The notes under the pieces were generated by a model. That model was not told where the DNA came from. It made no database searches and saw nothing but the letters and a program-made list of their open reading frames with translations. The translations under genes and the position numbers were made by a program. Shown one piece after another: positions 5,619 to 61,771 of a DNA stretch of 64,000 bases. Positions within the stretch are counted from its first letter, which is position 1; every line of letters begins with the position of its first letter. The DNA is from Thermacetogenium phaeum DSM 12270. GTDB lineage: Bacteria > Bacillota > DSM-12270 > Thermacetogeniales > Thermacetogeniaceae. The stretch covers positions 2,694,501-2,758,500 of the forward strand of contig NC_018870.1 in NCBI RefSeq assembly GCF_000305935.1, given 5' to 3'.

Positions 5619-5959
5619 CTACTCACAACTCCCTTCCAAGATTAACTTTTCGCTTAGAGTTCTCTCTTAATCACCAAGCAGCTTCAACCACAATACAGGA
5701 TTGAATCGATTGGCCCCCTTCTTCCGAGAGCAACACCTCCTTGTCCTTTTTCCCCCCTCAATTTCGTTTTTGTGGTAACTGCATCCCGGTCTATTCTAAC
5801 CTTGAATGCAGTTTTTCATTACTGGATCTAAAAGCACAGCTTCTGTTTTAACCCTTCCAATTAAGGAAGACACTATGATTATTTTTATTCGCCACAAATT
5901 CAATTTTTCCTACTAATAGATTAATTATTTTATTCTGGAATTGGAGGTGTACCTGCCGT
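5619..5959. other. Intergenic region upstream of fhs
   Basis: AT-richer 340-bp gap holding the leader of fhs. On the minus strand an AAGGAGGTG lies at about 5730-5740, but no convincing open frame follows. I see no known riboswitch pattern. Repeat copy A begins at 5960. Confidence 0.4.
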
Positions 5960-6164
5960 GAAAATACATCAAGTTCACCCGCCGGTCTGCCGCTCGACTC
6001 CCGATTCCAGGCCGGACAGGACGATGGCTCGCTTCGGGACAGCTCTGGGATGCTGCGTAACAAGTTGCCTGTCCTGTTACCAGGCCTTCCGTAGGTCGCT
6101 CGCCGGTAGACCCGCCGGGTATTTTTATGCTCTTTTGGTGCCGCCGCTGGCGGCATGGTGGTCT
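5960..6164 (-). repeat. Leader-type repeat, copy A (subtype I)
   Basis: Read on the minus strand it begins AGACCACCATGCCGCC, forms a GCCGCC-AGC-GGCGGC hairpin followed by ACCAA, and ends in GTATTTTC. The body is a nested imperfect inverted repeat; for example GGACAGG pairs with CCTGTCC and AAATAC with GTATTT. Copies B (47033-47341) and C (37286-37356) share both ends. It lies between ndk and fhs, both on the minus strand. Confidence 0.75.
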
Positions 6165-8599: not shown

Positions 8600-10054
8600 T
8601 CAATTTTCGAGCTTATTTTCCCCAGGCAATTTCCTGGCCCGCAAAATAAGGATCCGCCGGGTTTCCGGTAACACCGGAGCAGCACACCCCCTCCTGTACC
8701 CAACAACCCAACAGATCTCCTCACCCGACGTCACAAGAGGCACCCTATCCCTCTCTTCCGGAGGTATCCGCAGCTCGCCGAACAGCTTTTTGAGCTTTTT
8801 GGTGCCATTAAGGCCAAAAGGCCGGATGCGATCCCCTGCCCGCCGCGTTCGTACTGTTAGAGGCAGCTTCATTTTATCATAATCGAAACATACCTGGTAG
8901 TTCTCGGAGAAAAGGCAGCGGATATCACCATCACCCTTCAAGTTTTCCCGCTGCCGGACCTCCGCCTGAAAAAGAAATCCCAGAGCGGGAACCGGCGTCT
9001 CTCCCGGCACCTGCAGAACCACCTGCAACCCGCTTTTCGTTGGGTCCTCTGCAGGATGAGGATGGCGACCGTTGACAATAACCCGGAAGTTATCATAGCC
9101 CTTTTTCAACCTCACCCCGTGCGGCAGTTGGAGCTCCCCTCCCGGGAGGTTTTTTCTCAGGAATTCCAAACAATTGATGATGTGCCTGTAACCGAGATCC
9201 TTAAGACTCCCACCTGCTTCCCTGATCGCCCGGCGCAGCAGGCGCCTGCATACCGCCGGAGGCAGGGAGAGAAAATCCTCTAGGTTCAGCACCGCTTCCC
9301 CTTTTCCCCGCTTCCAGAGAACCCTGCGCAGTATTCGCCCGGTCAATTCCTCCAGAAAAGCGTCCTCGGCTCCCATAATTTCCGCCAGCTGCAGAATCGC
9401 CCGGTCAACTCCGGGGTTAAACTTCTCCCGCAGATAAGGCAGCAATTCCCTCCGCAGGCGGTTGCGCCGGTAGTCCGTCGTCAGGTTGGAAGCATCGGTG
9501 CGCCAGGTCAAAAGGCGGGCACCGCAGTATTCTTCGATTTCCTTTCGAGTCACATCCAGAAAAGGGCGGATTACCATCCCCCGGCGCGGCGGCATTCCGG
9601 AAAGACCTTTTGGGCCCGCCCCACGCAGAATATTCAAGAGCACAGTCTCCACCTGATCCCCGGCATGGTGCCCGACGGCGATCCTCTGGGCATTCACCCT
9701 CTCCGCCACGTGGTGGAGGAACCGGTAGCGCGCCCACCTCCCGGCATCTTCGATCCCCATTTTCTTCACTGCGGCCAGGCGGGAGACCCGGGCATAACCG
9801 ACGGTAACAGGGATGCCCAGCTCACGGGCAAACCGCCGGACAAAAGCGGCATCCTCCCCGGCCTCCTGGCGCAGCAGATGGTTCAGGTGGGCCACATGGA
9901 GTTCTAAGGGAAAAGAGCGGGAGATCTCGTTGAGAACGGAGAGCAGGGCTACCGAATCCGCCCCCCCGGAAACCCCCACCACAACCCTCATCCCCGGCTC
10001 CAGCAGCTCGTATTTTCTGATGAAGTTCTTTACTTTCTCAGGCAGATCGGACAC
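8600..10054 (-). CDS. tilS: tRNA(Ile)-lysidine synthase
   Basis: TilS modifies the CAU anticodon of tRNA-Ile2 to lysidine, changing its identity from Met to Ile. The PP-loop SGGADSVALLSVL lies near residues 29-41, followed by HLNHLLR and VGHHAGDQVETVLLNILRG. The C-terminal domain includes RAGDRIRPFGLNG and PPEERDRVPL. 484 aa, normal for the long form. It starts 7 nt after spoIIE, so it is probably translated from the same mRNA. Confidence 0.95.
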   Translation of the reverse strand: MSDLPEKVKNFIRKYELLEPGMRVVVGVSGGADSVALLSVLNEISRSFPLELHVAHLNHLLRQEAGEDAAFVRRFARELGIPVTVGYARVSRLAAVKKMGIEDAGRWARYRFLHHVAERVNAQRIAVGHHAGDQVETVLLNILRGAGPKGLSGMPPRRGMVIRPFLDVTRKEIEEYCGARLLTWRTDASNLTTDYRRNRLRRELLPYLREKFNPGVDRAILQLAEIMGAEDAFLEELTGRILRRVLWKRGKGEAVLNLEDFLSLPPAVCRRLLRRAIREAGGSLKDLGYRHIINCLEFLRKNLPGGELQLPHGVRLKKGYDNFRVIVNGRHPHPAEDPTKSGLQVVLQVPGETPVPALGFLFQAEVRQRENLKGDGDIRCLFSENYQVCFDYDKMKLPLTVRTRRAGDRIRPFGLNGTKKLKKLFGELRIPPEERDRVPLVTSGEEICWVVGYRRGCAAPVLPETRRILILRARKLPGENKLEN

Positions 10055-10061
10055 CCGTTAT

Positions 10062-11654
10062 TCACTCCACTTCAACACAATAACGCGCCACCAGCACGCT
10101 CATATCGTCCCGGTTTTGATAACCGGCCGCCTTTAAGGCATGCTTCAACACCAGGTCGGCAATCACCTGGGGATCCTCCAGTACAAGCCCCCGCAGGTAA
10201 TTATAGAGCCAGTCGCCACCGGCGCCTTCATGACCACCGGCCTCGGTTACCCCGTCCGTTGCCATGATCAGAATATCCCCGGACAAGATCCGCCTTTCGA
10301 GAACTTCGGGATCGACATCCTCCAGAATCCCCGCCGGCCAGCAGACCGACCTGATGATCTCCACCTGATCACCCCTCTTAAGATAGCTGGGAGGAGCGCC
10401 TGCCTTCAAAAACTTTAAGCAGCAGGCATCAAGGTCGGCCAGGGCGAGATCGATAGTGGCGGCGCTTTCCTCCCCTCCCCGCAGATAGAGGGCGGTATTT
10501 ACTATTGCGGCCGCTGCCCCTGGTTCCAGATCATAGCTTAGCAATTGCTCCATTAATTTTACCACAATCCTGCTTTCGCGGGCAGCATTAATCCCAGCCC
10601 CCATCCCGTCGCTGAGCGTCATGAGAAGGCGGCGGGACTCCAGGTGGGCCACACCCAGGCTGTCCCCACACAAAGTCTCACTAAAGCGCGGGCGCTGGGC
10701 AAACCCGACTTGTGCATGAAGCGGCCGGGCCGGGGGGGCTTCTTTCCCTTCACCTAAGATGGACTGGAAGCGCCCTGCAATCAGGTACAATCCCACCGCC
10801 AGGATGCTTTCCCAGAAGTGCCCCACCAGCCCCTCCTGCTGTCCGTAAAAGGCGGCGAACAGAAGAGTGCTCAGCAAAAATCCCCCGATCACACAGGCCC
10901 GTCCGCAGTTTTTGAAAAGGCCGGCAAAAAATCCGGTAGCCGCGTAAAACCCCGTGCGCTGCAGCAGGCTCCAGAAGTTGCCGGAAAGCAGCCCTATAAC
11001 CACTCCCGCAGCTGCCCCCCAGCCGGCTCCGAAAGTACCGGCAACCAGCAGGAGAACGCCGCGCCCCAAAACATCCCCGATCAGGGCGGGCCCAACCCGG
11101 AGATCGCCGAGCCCGAGAATGACGCAAACAATCAGGAGGTAAAAGGAAAGCCTCTTTTCCCTCCTGTAATTATTCAGAAGGAAGTGGATGGGGATCACAA
11201 TCAGCCCGGCCAGCACCGATTCGGCGATCAGGCCCGGCAAAAATCCGGGCTTCGGTCCATTTAAAAGGAAACACCCGTATTTAACCGCAAGGTTCGTTCC
11301 TCCCGCCACCAGGGCGGCGGAAATCCTGGATTCTCTGAGCCTTGCCCTCCCCCTCCGAGCCAGCAGGGCAGCACTCCCGGCGACAAGCAAATCCCCGATC
11401 AACCCTCCGGAAAAAGCAGACGGCGGCCTGCTCCCCACACCCAGAAAAACACCGGCCAGCGCCGGCCAGAAAAGATGGGAGGGAAGAACGGCCGTCGTCA
11501 CCACCAGAGGAACTGTCAAGGGAGCCAGGTCGCTGAGCAAAGCGCGACCGGCAGACAGCCCGATTAGGAAATAAAACAGGTACCACCCCGGCGCGACATT
11601 TGCTGCCGCCAAAATCGTTGCCAGCTGCCTTAGCCGGCCGACCAATACGGTCAC
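10062..11654 (-). CDS. spoIIE: Stage II sporulation protein E, compact form
   Basis: SpoIIE is the PP2C phosphatase at the sporulation septum that dephosphorylates SpoIIAA and so releases sigma-F. The first 310 residues are strongly hydrophobic, with about ten predicted membrane helices. The last 200 hold a PP2C/SpoIIE phosphatase: LMTLSDGMGAGINAARES, DIDVLIMATDGV-type motif (ILIMATDGVTEAGG) and NRDDMSVLV. At about 530 aa it is far shorter than the Bacillus protein (about 827); most of the central oligomerisation/FtsZ-interaction region is missing. The open frame extends to a TTG at 11684, but the GTG at 11654 has GGGGGGG 6 nt before it and lies downstream of a TATAAT at 11691-11686. Linked to tilS as in Bacillus. 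Confidence 0.85.
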   Translation of the reverse strand: MTVLVGRLRQLATILAAANVAPGWYLFYFLIGLSAGRALLSDLAPLTVPLVVTTAVLPSHLFWPALAGVFLGVGSRPPSAFSGGLIGDLLVAGSAALLARRGRARLRESRISAALVAGGTNLAVKYGCFLLNGPKPGFLPGLIAESVLAGLIVIPIHFLLNNYRREKRLSFYLLIVCVILGLGDLRVGPALIGDVLGRGVLLLVAGTFGAGWGAAAGVVIGLLSGNFWSLLQRTGFYAATGFFAGLFKNCGRACVIGGFLLSTLLFAAFYGQQEGLVGHFWESILAVGLYLIAGRFQSILGEGKEAPPARPLHAQVGFAQRPRFSETLCGDSLGVAHLESRRLLMTLSDGMGAGINAARESRIVVKLMEQLLSYDLEPGAAAAIVNTALYLRGGEESAATIDLALADLDACCLKFLKAGAPPSYLKRGDQVEIIRSVCWPAGILEDVDPEVLERRILSGDILIMATDGVTEAGGHEGAGGDWLYNYLRGLVLEDPQVIADLVLKHALKAAGYQNRDDMSVLVARYCVEVE

Positions 11655-31978: not shown

Positions 31979-32036
31979 GCGATACCCTTCTCCTTTCCTT
32001 TGAAAGCTTATTTTACGGAATTATAACCTGCCCTCA

Positions 32037-32304
32037 CATACATTTCGGTTTATCCTTGCACTTGCTCCCGGATCTTTCGGTTTAACTCACCCTAAGACTC
32101 GTCGATAGATAACCAGCCGATCAGCTCCTATGAAGGCATCCCTGCCGCAGAGTCACCTATCTCGACATCATGTCTCGATTCGGCTGCCGTTTGCTGCTCC
32201 TTCGTCAAGGGCGAGTAACAACCCCCCTACGGTCGCTGCTCCGGCAAGGATAAACTCTTTTTTCCTTCCTCTGTTAGTGCAGCAGCTGGCGGCATGGTGG
32301 TCTA
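32037..32304 (-). repeat. Leader-type repeat, copy D (subtype II)
   Basis: On the minus strand it begins AGACCACCATGCCGCC; those first bases overlap the ygeY stop codon. The body is nested: TTTATCCTTGC/GCAAGGATAAA, ACTCGCCCT/AGGGTGAGT, CAGCCGA/TCGGCTG, with hairpins GACATGATGTC and GGCAGGGATGCC. About 80 percent alike to copy E. It lies between ygeY and the hydantoinase gene. Confidence 0.85.
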
Positions 32305-37260: not shown

Positions 37261-37285
37261 TATCCAACCTCCAAACTCCTGCTAT

Positions 37286-37356
37286 GAAAATACATCAAGT
37301 TCACCCGTCGGGTATTTTCATGCTCTGTTGGTGCCGTCCCAGCGGCGTGAGGGTCT
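37286..37356 (-). repeat. Leader-type repeat, copy C (minimal)
   Basis: 71-bp version containing only the two ends of subtype I: AGACCCTCACGCCGC...GGCACCAACAGAG, then GAAAATACCCG and the closing GTATTTTC. The internal arms of copies A and B are absent. It ends 26 nt before the start codon of the cysteine desulfidase-like gene. Confidence 0.75.
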
Positions 37357-44926: not shown

Positions 44927-44945
44927 CCCCTCCCCTGAAAAGATG

Positions 44946-45133
44946 TTCCGGTTGCACTTTGTGCTTGCTCCCGGACTCCGCCGCTAATGCTTCGTCAACG
45001 GCAGTGGTCCTATCCGCCTTCTCCGGTGCAGAGCCGCTTATGCATCACATCCTGTTTAGTTCTGATGTCTTTGCCGCTTCTCATCAAAGGCGAGGCGACG
45101 ACGTTCGGAAGGTCGCCGTATAAACCTCAGCCC
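44946..45133 (-). repeat. Leader-type repeat, copy F (degenerate, subtype II)
   Basis: Minus strand keeps recognisable blocks of copies D and E: GGTTTATA, CTCGCC, ACAGGATGT, CGGCTCTGC, CCGGGAGCAAGC. The AGACC...GGCGGC end is missing. It ends 20 nt before the spoIID start. Confidence 0.55.
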
Positions 45134-46875: not shown

Positions 46876-47032
46876 TCCCTTCCCTGCTGCCTGCAGCCAC
46901 CGCTATCTCCTAGCCGTTCCACCCGCCCGAACCTGCCCCCTGGCTCTCCACATTGACGTTAACCTCCGGACCCAACAGGCAATGAGAACAGTCCTTGCTC
47001 CGACCGAGCGCCACTTTTCCAGATTCTGCCCT

Positions 47033-47341
47033 GAAAATACATCAAGTTCACCTGCCGGTCTACCGCTCGACTCCCGATTCCAGGCCGAACAGGACGACGG
47101 CTCGCTTCGGGACAGCTCTGGGATGCTGCGTAACATGTTACGAATTGCTTCTGCCAATCGCAGCGTTTGGCCTCGCAGCAAATCCATTCCGTTGAAACTC
47201 TTAAGGTGTCTGTACTCGCATTCCGACCTGTCATCCCCGCTTCGCCTGTCCTGTTACCCGGCCTTCCATGGGTCGCTCGCCGGTAGACCCGTCGGGTATT
47301 TTCATACTCTGTTGGTGCCGCCGCTGGCGGCATGGTGGTCT
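47033..47341 (-). repeat. Leader-type repeat, copy B (subtype I, longest)
   Basis: Minus strand starts AGACCACCATGCCGCC-AGC-GGCGGCACCAACAGAG and ends GTATTTTC. Matches copy A on both sides of a roughly 95-nt segment that A lacks (about 47130-47245). It lies in the gntR leader, 158 nt before the start codon. Confidence 0.75.
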
Positions 47342-51996: not shown

Positions 51997-52297
51997 GCAT
52001 CCTCCGGCACGAGGCAGTAAACGCAGCCGCGTCCTGCTGGTTGACTTCCTTGACGTTTAATCCACTGCGGTTTTAGTAGATTCAGCAATTCTACCGGAGA
52101 GGGCTCATTCCCAGTCTCCCCAGCATAGCTGCACGGTTCGCCCCTGCCATCCTCAGTTTTAAAGCGCCCACGGCACCATTCTCTACCGATTCTACTGCCC
52201 GGCGATAGAGGCGGCGGACTACTCAATATCGAAAAAATTGATTCCGAGGAAGGAATTCTTGTGAAGCTGGCGAATTATTTTTTCTATATTAATTCAA
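51997..52297. other. Gap between the MFS gene and the Moco riboswitch
   Basis: 301 bp; presumably holds the fdhA operon promoter. No gene or clear promoter pair recognised. Confidence 0.35.
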
Positions 52298-52395
52298 TTC
52301 TCCGAGTTCACCGTCCTGTGGCAGTTTGCTATGGCGGTCGAACCGATAGGGTGTACCTGGAAACGGGTGCGCCTCCCAGTGCGGAAAGGAGACTA
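52298..52395 (+). ncRNA. Moco-family riboswitch upstream of formate dehydrogenase
   Basis: Conserved order: TCTCCGAG (P1 left), GCTATGG, CCTGGAAACGGG, GCGCCTCCC, GCGGAAAGGAGA (P1 right). The pair GCCTCCC...GGAAAGG and CTCC/GGAG closing match the molybdenum-cofactor RNA upstream of E. coli moaA and the second copy at 61565-61675. Binds Moco or the tungsten cofactor; the terminator downstream at 52415 is its likely expression platform. Confidence 0.85.
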
Positions 52396-52414
52396 CGGCA
52401 AAAGCGTTCGCTCG

Positions 52415-52903: not shown

Positions 52904-53170
52904 AGACCCTCACGCCGCCTCTGGCGGCACCAACAGAGGAACGAAAAAAGGGTTTATCCTTGCCGGCGCAGCGACCTGACGGAGGTTGTTACTCGCCCTT
53001 GACGAAGGAGCAGCAAACGGCAGCCGAATCGAGACAGGATGTCGAGATAGGCGACTCTGCGCCAGGGAAGGCGCATAGGAGCCGGTCGGCTGCCGTCTGC
53101 GACAAGTCTTAGGGCGAGTTAAACCGGAGTCCGGGAGCAAGCGCAAGGATAAACCGAAAGGTATTTTCAT
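52904..53170 (+). repeat. Leader-type repeat, copy E (subtype II, best preserved)
   Basis: Begins AGACCCTCACGCCGCC-TCT-GGCGGCACCAACAGAG; nested stems GTTTATCCTTGC/GCAAGGATAAAC, ACTCGCCCT/AGGGCGAGT, ACGGCAGCCGA/TCGGCTGCCGT, hairpins GACAGGATGTC and TGCGCCAGGGAAGGCGCA; ends GGTATTTTC. Lies 82 nt before the fdhA start. Confidence 0.88.
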
Positions 53171-53251
53171 GACAGCTGTTGTGTCCCGAAGAGATAACAG
53201 ATCGCCTGAATGGTGTTATCGACCAACCAAAATTTGAAAGGAGTGGTATTG

Positions 53252-61548: not shown

Positions 61549-61564
61549 TTTGCATCCCACGATA

Positions 61565-61675
61565 AGATCTCTCCTTTCCAAACACGGGAGGCAAGGCGGT
61601 TTCCCGTCCTGCCCAGCGGCCAAAGACCATAGCCGGAGAGCCGGCCTCAGGCCTTTTGGCTCGGAGAAAAGATCC
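61565..61675 (-). ncRNA. Moco-family riboswitch upstream of tupBC
   Basis: Minus strand order: GATCTTTTCTCCGAGCC, CCGGCTCTCCGGCTATGG, TCTTTGGCCGCTGGGCAGG, ACGGGAAACCG, CTTGCCTCCCG, TTTGGAAAGGAGAGATC. P1 closes between GATCTTTTCTCC and GGAGAGATC. The blocks GCCTCCCG...GGAAAGG are the Moco RNA hallmark. Long peripheral arm kept, as in classic Moco RNAs. Confidence 0.92.
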
Positions 61676-61771
61676 CATTTTTTATTATTCTTTTAAGATC
61701 TTCGTGACTTAACCGGCAAAATCCTTCCCTGTGCGACTAATTGTGCCGCTTTCCACCTGACACTGCGGAGC

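What the first reader, a model, noticed from the sequence alone, without database searches (positions are those of the whole stretch)
32037..32304. Compensating base changes between repeat copies D and E
E has hairpin TGCGCC-AGGGAA-GGCGCA; D has GCGGCA-GGGA-TGCC, changing both sides of the stem. E stem ACTCGCCCT/AGGGCGAGT becomes ACTCGCCCT/AGGGTGAGT in D, a G-U wobble. Apical GACAGGATGTC becomes GACATGATGTC with pairing kept. Outer stem TTTATCCTTGC/GCAAGGATAAA is unchanged. The pattern suggests selection on a folded RNA or a DNA cruciform rather than on coding.
Basis: seen in the sequence. Interest (0 to 1): 0.7.

Follow-up and report, generated by a model that had tools for sequence, protein, structure and literature searches.

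The report
Jumping DNA carrying a two-hairpin RNA
The two repeats are copies of a small transposable element that has lost its own enzyme, carries the ends of an RNA-guided (IS110-type) transposon, and has inside it a widespread bacterial RNA fold of unknown function whose two hairpin tips look like landing sites for the regulator protein CsrA.

Summary
Confirmed in substance, re-explained. D (32028-32303, minus) and E (52904-53175, plus) are two of about 40 full or partial genomic copies of a ~270-bp element. Its ~206-nt core is the Rfam TwoAYGGAY RNA (E 46.2 bits, gathering score 43; D does not score). In 66 cores from Thermacetogeniaceae the fold covaries strongly: 94.5% of cells paired, 166 double-changed cells against 8-14 when the stems are slid by 1-3 columns. 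So the covariation inference holds, though the D/E pair alone proves little and D is a decayed copy.

New here: the core sits between the ends of an IS110-family insertion sequence, which encodes a recombinase of the kind guided by bridge RNA. The same genome holds full-length IS110s with these ends. A sister non-autonomous element occupies the identical nucleotide of the same CRISPR repeat as one of them. The upstream guide of the IS110 relatives matches and co-varies with the right end. The core also occurs inverted between the same ends, so it is cargo.

Both apical loops are CA(N)GGANG, with ANGGA near-invariant and N free: the CsrA motif. csrA is in 42 of 44 TwoAYGGAY genomes against 171 of 255 others. 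CsrA binding, expression and mobility are inferred.

The parts
32028..32303 (-). Copy D: whole IS110-ended element X, both AG cores included. The left-end AG lies in the TAG stop codon of the upstream gene (stop 32302-32304).
32047..32257 (-). D: TwoAYGGAY-type core, outer stem GAGTTTATCCTTGC..GCAAGGATAAACC (decayed copy; below RF01731 threshold)
32164..32174 (-). D hairpin 1 GACATGATGTC, GGA loop lost
   Evidence: column frequencies
32135..32148 (-). D hairpin 2 GCGGCAGGGATGCC, loop AGGGAT intact (CAGGGATG)
52904..53175 (+). Copy E: whole IS110-ended element X, AGACC..TTTTCATGACAG
52914..52928 (+). E left-end hairpin GCCGCC-TCT-GGCGGC, shared with the IS110 left end (there GTCACC-TCC-GGTGAC)
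52950..53155 (+). E: TwoAYGGAY core (RF01731 match 52977-53132, 46.2 bits, gathering 43)
53033..53043 (+). E hairpin 1, loop CAGGATG (CsrA-like)
53058..53075 (+). E hairpin 2, loop CAGGGAAG (CANGGANG, CsrA-like)
47026..47341 (-). Sister non-autonomous element Y (316 bp): same ends, different structured interior
5953..6164 (-). Sister element Y, 212-bp internally deleted form
37279..37356 (-). Minimal element: left-end hairpin plus right end only

Best explanation
D and E are copies of a non-autonomous IS110-family element that carries a TwoAYGGAY structured RNA as cargo. The element keeps only the left end of an IS110 (about 46 bp with a hairpin) and its right end (TTTTCAGGGC-AG). Recombinase and bridge RNA are supplied in trans by an autonomous IS110, whose bridge-RNA donor guide reads the right-end sequence, and insertion uses a 2-nt AG core. 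The inserted copy places a ~206-nt two-hairpin RNA into intergenic regions and operons. The two apical CA(N)GGANG loops, 26 nt apart, would be bound by one CsrA dimer when the copy is transcribed, so that copies act as dispersed CsrA binding sites or weak decoys. Shown by sequence: family membership of E, the ends, the related IS110s, the shared insertion site of a sister element, guide/right-end co-variation, covariation of the fold and loop conservation. Inferred: movement in trans, transcription, CsrA binding and any regulatory effect.
For: E matches RF01731 above its gathering score, as do two further copies of this genome. About 40 full or partial copies exist, and the full ones share both ends. 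1562-bp elements with the same ends encode DEDD_Tnp_IS110 + Transposase_20 proteins. The 304-bp sister element and the 1562-bp IS110 sit at the same nucleotide of the same CRISPR repeat, GTTTCAATTCCTCAT|AG|..|AG|GTACGCTG. The upstream guide GCACG[CAGGGYAG]ATT of the IS110s equals the right-end terminus and changes with it in relatives (CAAGATAG, CGGGATAG, CATGGGAG, CATGGTAG, CAGGATAG). In experiments by others, cargo between IS110/IS1111-type ends moves with transposase and NCR in trans (PMC11187229), and a 22-bp IS621 donor suffices with bridge RNA in trans (PMC11208160). The core occurs in both orientations between the ends (L220, L221, L222, L224, L225). Fold: 166 double-changed cells against 48 in shuffles and 8-14 in slid registers. 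Loops: A86 G87 G88 A89 and A114 G116 G117 A118 at 93-99%, N90, N115 and N119 free, matching CsrA's ANGGA (PMC7366521). CsrA in 42/44 TwoAYGGAY genomes against 171/255 others, Fisher p = 4e-5, not corrected for kinship.
Against: No IS110 transposase was found in the g3 and g7 relatives G002, G009, G014 and G012, although the g3 genomes carry many such elements; MAG gaps or loss could explain this, another mobiliser cannot be excluded. X right ends vary (CATGACAG, CAGGGTAG), so not all copies would be donors for one bridge RNA. Target guides were not convincingly identified. Only 11 of 26 cores in this genome keep both loop motifs, 14 keep one. An R-scape-like tree null gave no single column pair at E<0.05, so the covariation case rests on named helices. 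The first steps to G-U and A-C are symmetric. Two TwoAYGGAY genomes lack a CsrA match (G196 and G248, incomplete MAGs). No expression or binding data were available.
Confidence: 0.68

Rival explanations
1. The repeat is a cis-regulatory RNA leader or riboswitch-like element controlling the adjacent genes (ygeY/hydantoinase for D; the gene downstream of E).
For: D lies between two co-directional genes. Rfam types RF01731 as Cis-reg. 17 of 26 downstream genes are in sense orientation (p = 0.17).
Against: Copies lie beside unrelated genes in all four arrangements (9/8/7/2), share transposon ends, and the core is inverted relative to those ends in a related genus.
Confidence: 0.12
2. The fold is selected as DNA: a single strand or cruciform recognised by a transposase (REP/IS200-like logic), and the RNA is irrelevant.
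For: Outer stems are nearly always complementary even when replaced (L118/L239, L220-L225, L232). The first steps to G-U and A-C are equal. In G258 the core lies inside REP-like inverted repeats and in G135 between duplicated terminator hairpins.
Against: IS110-type donors need only short end sequences and IS110s move without this core. The loop constraint is exactly ANGGA with free N positions on one strand, a protein-RNA signature. G-U to Watson-Crick repairs exceed A-C repairs 16 to 4 (p = 0.012).
Confidence: 0.15
3. The core is itself a bridge/seek RNA that programmes the element's own insertion.
For: Structured RNA of the right size inside IS110 ends, next to the left end where IS110 bridge RNAs are encoded.
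Against: BLAST finds no similarity to the IS110 upstream region beyond the first 45-48 bp. By reading, no donor guide matching the right end (GCAGGGYAG) stands in the core, and its loops are the constant part, not the variable part. The core works with other ends in other genera and in either orientation.
Confidence: 0.04
4. Plain duplication followed by random changes, without selection on structure.
For: D and E alone differ at about 15% of sites and D is decayed. The tree-based test found no significant single column pair.
Against: 0 of 500 shuffles reach the observed double-changed cells; slid registers give 8-14 against 166. About 24 double Watson-Crick-to-Watson-Crick events on the tree against 1.6 to non-pairs.
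Confidence: 0.02

Closest known systems
TwoAYGGAY RNA (Rfam RF01731; Weinberg et al. 2010, PMC2864571)
   Same: Two GGA-loop hairpins inside a closing helix with tandem G-A; E and two other copies in this genome exceed the gathering score.
   Different: Published description gives no function and no mobility in the text found. Here the core is embedded in IS110 ends, is multi-copy, and D falls below threshold.
IS110-family insertion sequences with bridge RNA / seekRNA (IS621 in PMC11208160; ISEc11 and ISEc21 in PMC11187229)
   Same: Same left and right ends, 2-nt core, upstream guide matching the right end, related autonomous copies in the genome.
   Different: The element has no recombinase gene and no recognisable bridge RNA; it resembles the published artificial mini-IS with cargo. 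Its core is AG on the strand read here, IS621's is CT.
CsrA-sequestering sRNAs (CsrB, RsmX/Y/Z); the proposal for TwoAYGGAY by Gardner and Eldai, PMC4333381
   Same: Hairpins exposing ANGGA; csrA present in this genome.
   Different: Only two sites per RNA instead of many, dispersed mobile copies instead of one gene, no binding data.
Bacterial MITEs and REPINs
   Same: Short, non-coding, multi-copy, non-autonomous, structured.
   Different: No terminal inverted repeats; ends are of IS110 type with a 2-nt core and no longer target duplication.

Membership tests
TwoAYGGAY (RF01731) | Covariance-model score at or above the gathering score (43 bits) | tested here: met
   E 46.2 bits; 48.6 and 45.3 bits for two other copies. 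D: no match at E<=1, so D belongs only by homology to E.
TwoAYGGAY (RF01731) | Two hairpins with AYGGAY-type loops inside a closing stem, with covariation | tested here: met
   Loops CA(N)GGANG; 23 of 50 pairs with changes on both sides.
IS110-family non-autonomous derivative | Same ends as an autonomous IS110 in the genome | tested here: met
   First 45-48 bp 77-80% identical to the 1562-bp IS110, same TTTTCAGGGC-AG right end.
IS110-family non-autonomous derivative | Insertion at the same site type as the autonomous element | tested here: met
   Met for sister element Y: identical nucleotide of the CRISPR repeat. For X only the shared YAG/AG core context was seen.
IS110-family non-autonomous derivative | Bridge-RNA donor guide of an autonomous element matches the element's right end | tested here: met
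   CAGGGCAG and CAGGGTAG guides match X right ends of the same sequence; other X right ends differ.
IS110-family non-autonomous derivative | Target guides match the insertion sites | tested here: inconclusive
   Only short partial matches seen by eye.
IS110-family non-autonomous derivative | Movement in trans | not testable with these tools
   Needs a transposition assay.
CsrA-binding RNA | ANGGA exposed in hairpin loops | tested here: met
   A and GGA 93-99% conserved, N positions free, in 74 copies collected by DNA similarity.
CsrA-binding RNA | csrA in the same genome | tested here: met
   G000:C1:590656-590811; 42 of 44 TwoAYGGAY genomes.
CsrA-binding RNA | Binds CsrA and is expressed | not testable with these tools
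   Needs EMSA or CLIP and RNA-seq.
CsrB/RsmZ-type sponge sRNA | Many GGA hairpins in one dedicated sRNA gene | tested here: not met
   Two motifs per copy at most in nearly all cores; dispersed repeat.
Bridge/seek RNA | Donor guide matching the right end within the RNA | tested here: not met
   No similarity of the core to the IS110 upstream region; no GCAGGGYAG-like guide in the core (by reading).

The most novel reading that the evidence does not exclude
TwoAYGGAY is a genuinely mobile regulatory RNA: a CsrA-binding module that has been captured as cargo by unrelated transposon types (IS110 ends here, REP-like inverted repeats in G258, a terminator-targeting element with duplicated hairpins in G135), and that in Thermacetogeniaceae is spread in trans by bridge-RNA-guided recombinases, rewiring or titrating CsrA as it accumulates.
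Probability: 0.3. Interest if true: 0.82.

Novelty: new variant of a known kind. Interest (0 to 1): 0.62.

Why it matters
It offers a concrete explanation for a curated RNA family that has had no assigned function since 2010: it is mobile cargo with CsrA-type loops. It also gives a natural counterpart of the artificial cargo-carrying mini-IS used with bridge/seek RNA recombinases. Both ideas are directly testable: one gel-shift assay with CsrA and one transposition assay in trans.

Tried and rejected
An R-scape-like G-test with tree null on 79 cores gave no pair at E<0.05, possibly because divergent outliers inflate the null; replaced by named-helix counts with slid-register and shuffle controls. 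The G-U versus A-C test for RNA against DNA was inconclusive on first-step counts. FliW co-occurrence was not informative. Cis-regulation rejected from gene context. Bridge-RNA identity of the core rejected. Rfam search for other members of the same clan gave only TwoAYGGAY. Literature searches for non-autonomous IS110 elements together with bridge RNA returned no paper in the library. The species (probably Thermacetogenium phaeum, from genome size and gene content) is my own knowledge; the look-up to check the size failed.

Full report
WHAT WAS CHECKED. The window is bases 2,694,501-2,758,500 of a single 2.94-Mb contig. D lies at 32028-32303 on the minus strand and E at 52904-53175 on the plus strand; they are about 85% identical. 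Their reading needs correction in two places. The GACAGGATGTC to GACATGATGTC change lies in the loop and removes a GGA that is nearly invariant in the family. The C-to-T giving G-U is a one-sided change. D is a decayed copy: its right end reads TATGTGAGGGCAG instead of TATTTTCAGGGCAG, and its left-end hairpin arms no longer match.

FAMILY. A BLAST search of the genome with D gives 42 matches, about 30 of them long. E scores 46.2 bits against Rfam RF01731, TwoAYGGAY (gathering score 43). Nine copies in the genome score at E<1e-3, three above the gathering score. D itself gives no Rfam hit. Among 299 Bacillota genomes, 44 carry the family, often in many copies. In relatives, 13 of 41 genomes searched carry the element, all of them in the same taxonomic family.

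COVARIATION. 66 cores from this and related genomes were aligned and a 50-pair structure was counted. 94.5% of cells pair; 23 pairs have changes on both sides; 166 cells are double-changed, against 48.2 +/- 5.3 after shuffling partners (0 of 500 reach it) and 8-14 when partners are slid by 1-3 columns. Examples: helix 4 col 86-105 GC 27, UA 26, CG 4; col 90-101 AU 36, GC 27; helix 3 GC to AU in 13; helix 2 CG to UA in 14; hairpin 2 CG 46, GC 8. On a tree, about 24 double Watson-Crick to Watson-Crick events stand against 1.6 double changes to non-pairs. A stricter search over all column pairs with a tree-based null found no single significant pair; this is reported as a limit. Shuffles ignore relatedness, so the slid registers are the better control.

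RNA OR DNA. First steps to G-U (48.5) and A-C (45) are equal, so wobble asymmetry does not decide it. Later repair to Watson-Crick pairs is commoner from G-U (16) than from A-C (4; p = 0.012). Loop positions are more telling. In 74 copies gathered by DNA similarity, not by a model that rewards GGA, hairpin 1 keeps A-G-G-A and hairpin 2 keeps A-N-G-G-A at 93-99%, while positions N90, N115 and N119 vary freely. With the closing C-G this reads CA(N)GGANG, the motif exposed by CsrA-binding hairpins (ANGGA, PMC7366521). Gardner and Eldai (PMC4333381) had proposed CsrA binding for TwoAYGGAY from a motif match; the conservation pattern here is an independent test. CsrA is found in 42 of the 44 TwoAYGGAY genomes (missing in G196 and G248) and in 171 of the other 255 (Fisher p = 4e-5). 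This is not corrected for phylogeny. In distant copies nearly all have two such motifs, but those were found with a model that contains them.

MOBILE ENDS. All full copies start AGACC(A/C)(C/T)CA(C/T)GCC, then a hairpin, then GGCACCAACAGAG, and end TATTTTCANGGCAG, with a few changes per copy. With up to two mismatches these ends recur 74 and 92 times in the genome and also bound other interiors: the Y elements (window 47026-47341 and 5953-6164), a minimal element (37279-37356), and 1562-bp elements (L120:9660-11221, L123:1343-2904) that encode a 405-aa protein with DEDD_Tnp_IS110 and Transposase_20 domains. A second IS110 with such ends is at L240. Between the IS110s and X the left-end hairpin itself changes on both sides (GTCACC/GGTGAC against GCCGCC/GGCGGC). 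The IS110 of Peptococcaceae BICA1-7 (L253) has a left end ending GAGGAACGAAAA, like X.

SAME SITE. The 304-bp Y element (L121) and the 1562-bp IS110 (L120) interrupt the same CRISPR repeat at the same nucleotide: TTCAATTCCTCAT|AG|element|AG|GTACGCTGAAAAC. The non-autonomous elements therefore most likely use the IS110 machinery, with AG as the 2-nt core. D's core AG falls in the TAG stop codon of the upstream gene (stop 32302-32304).

GUIDE. [quoted passage not shown] In IS110 relatives the upstream region contains GCACG followed by a copy of the right-end terminus, and the two change together: CAGGGCAG, CAGGGTAG, CAGGATAG, CAAGATAG, CGGGATAG, CATGGGAG, CATGGTAG (a few show one mismatch). X and Y lack such a guide, but X right ends match the guides of IS110-1 (CAGGGCAG) or IS110-2 (CAGGGTAG) in many copies. 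Trans mobilisation of cargo between such ends is established experimentally in related systems (PMC11187229; PMC11208160).

CARGO, NOT PART OF THE ENDS. In a related genus the core also sits inverted between the same ends (L220, L221, L222, L224, L225). In another genus (G012, G017, G019, G006) it occurs without these ends. In more distant genomes the flanks differ again: REP-like inverted repeats in G258, and duplicated terminator hairpins in G135 (own flank pairs score 17-53, cross pairs mean 10.8, max 18). The RNA core therefore seems to be carried by different mobile elements.

HOW IT LIKELY WORKS. Shown: ends, related autonomous IS110s, identical insertion site of a sister element, guide match, covarying fold, CsrA-type loops. 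Inferred: an IS110 recombinase with its bridge RNA excises and inserts the element in trans; a copy that lands in a transcribed region yields a two-hairpin RNA that one CsrA dimer can hold. Whether this benefits the element, the host or neither is unknown. Only 11 of 26 cores here keep both loops, so most copies may be dead. Gene context is mixed (9/8/7/2 arrangements), which argues against a dedicated leader function.

MAIN WEAKNESSES. No IS110 transposase was detected in related genomes that carry the element. Target guides were not resolved. No expression, binding or mobility data exist in these tools.

Noticed in passing
L120:1633-5091 and 9660-11221; L121:890-1193 and 8956-9259: Autonomous and non-autonomous IS110-type elements inserted repeatedly at the same nucleotide inside CRISPR repeats of this genome. 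The 3.46-kb one is an IS110 with another IS110-family element inserted into it.
   Followed up: partly
L168-L173, L175, L176 (genome G135): TwoAYGGAY elements lie between two near-identical copies of a terminator hairpin, like a 20-30 bp target duplication; the mobilising enzyme is unknown.
   Followed up: partly
L162, L163 (genome G258): TwoAYGGAY core inside long inverted repeats GTCACGGGGACGGTTCT.. resembling REP/REPIN sequences.
   Followed up: partly
window 47026-47341, 5953-6164; L121, L122: Y elements: a second structured interior (up to ~240 nt, predicted -117 kcal/mol for the 316-bp copy) between the same IS110 ends, without an Rfam match in the window; possibly another cargo RNA.
   Followed up: no
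L118, L239 (genome G004): Core with a completely different but complementary outer stem (GCGAAATTTAA../..TTTAAATTTCGC).
   Followed up: no
window 44930-44980: Fragment of an X element (right-end side), minus strand.
   Followed up: no
window 52288-52407 (+) and 61555-61678 (-): Two Moco (molybdenum/tungsten) riboswitches; E lies downstream of the first one, before the next gene.
   Followed up: no
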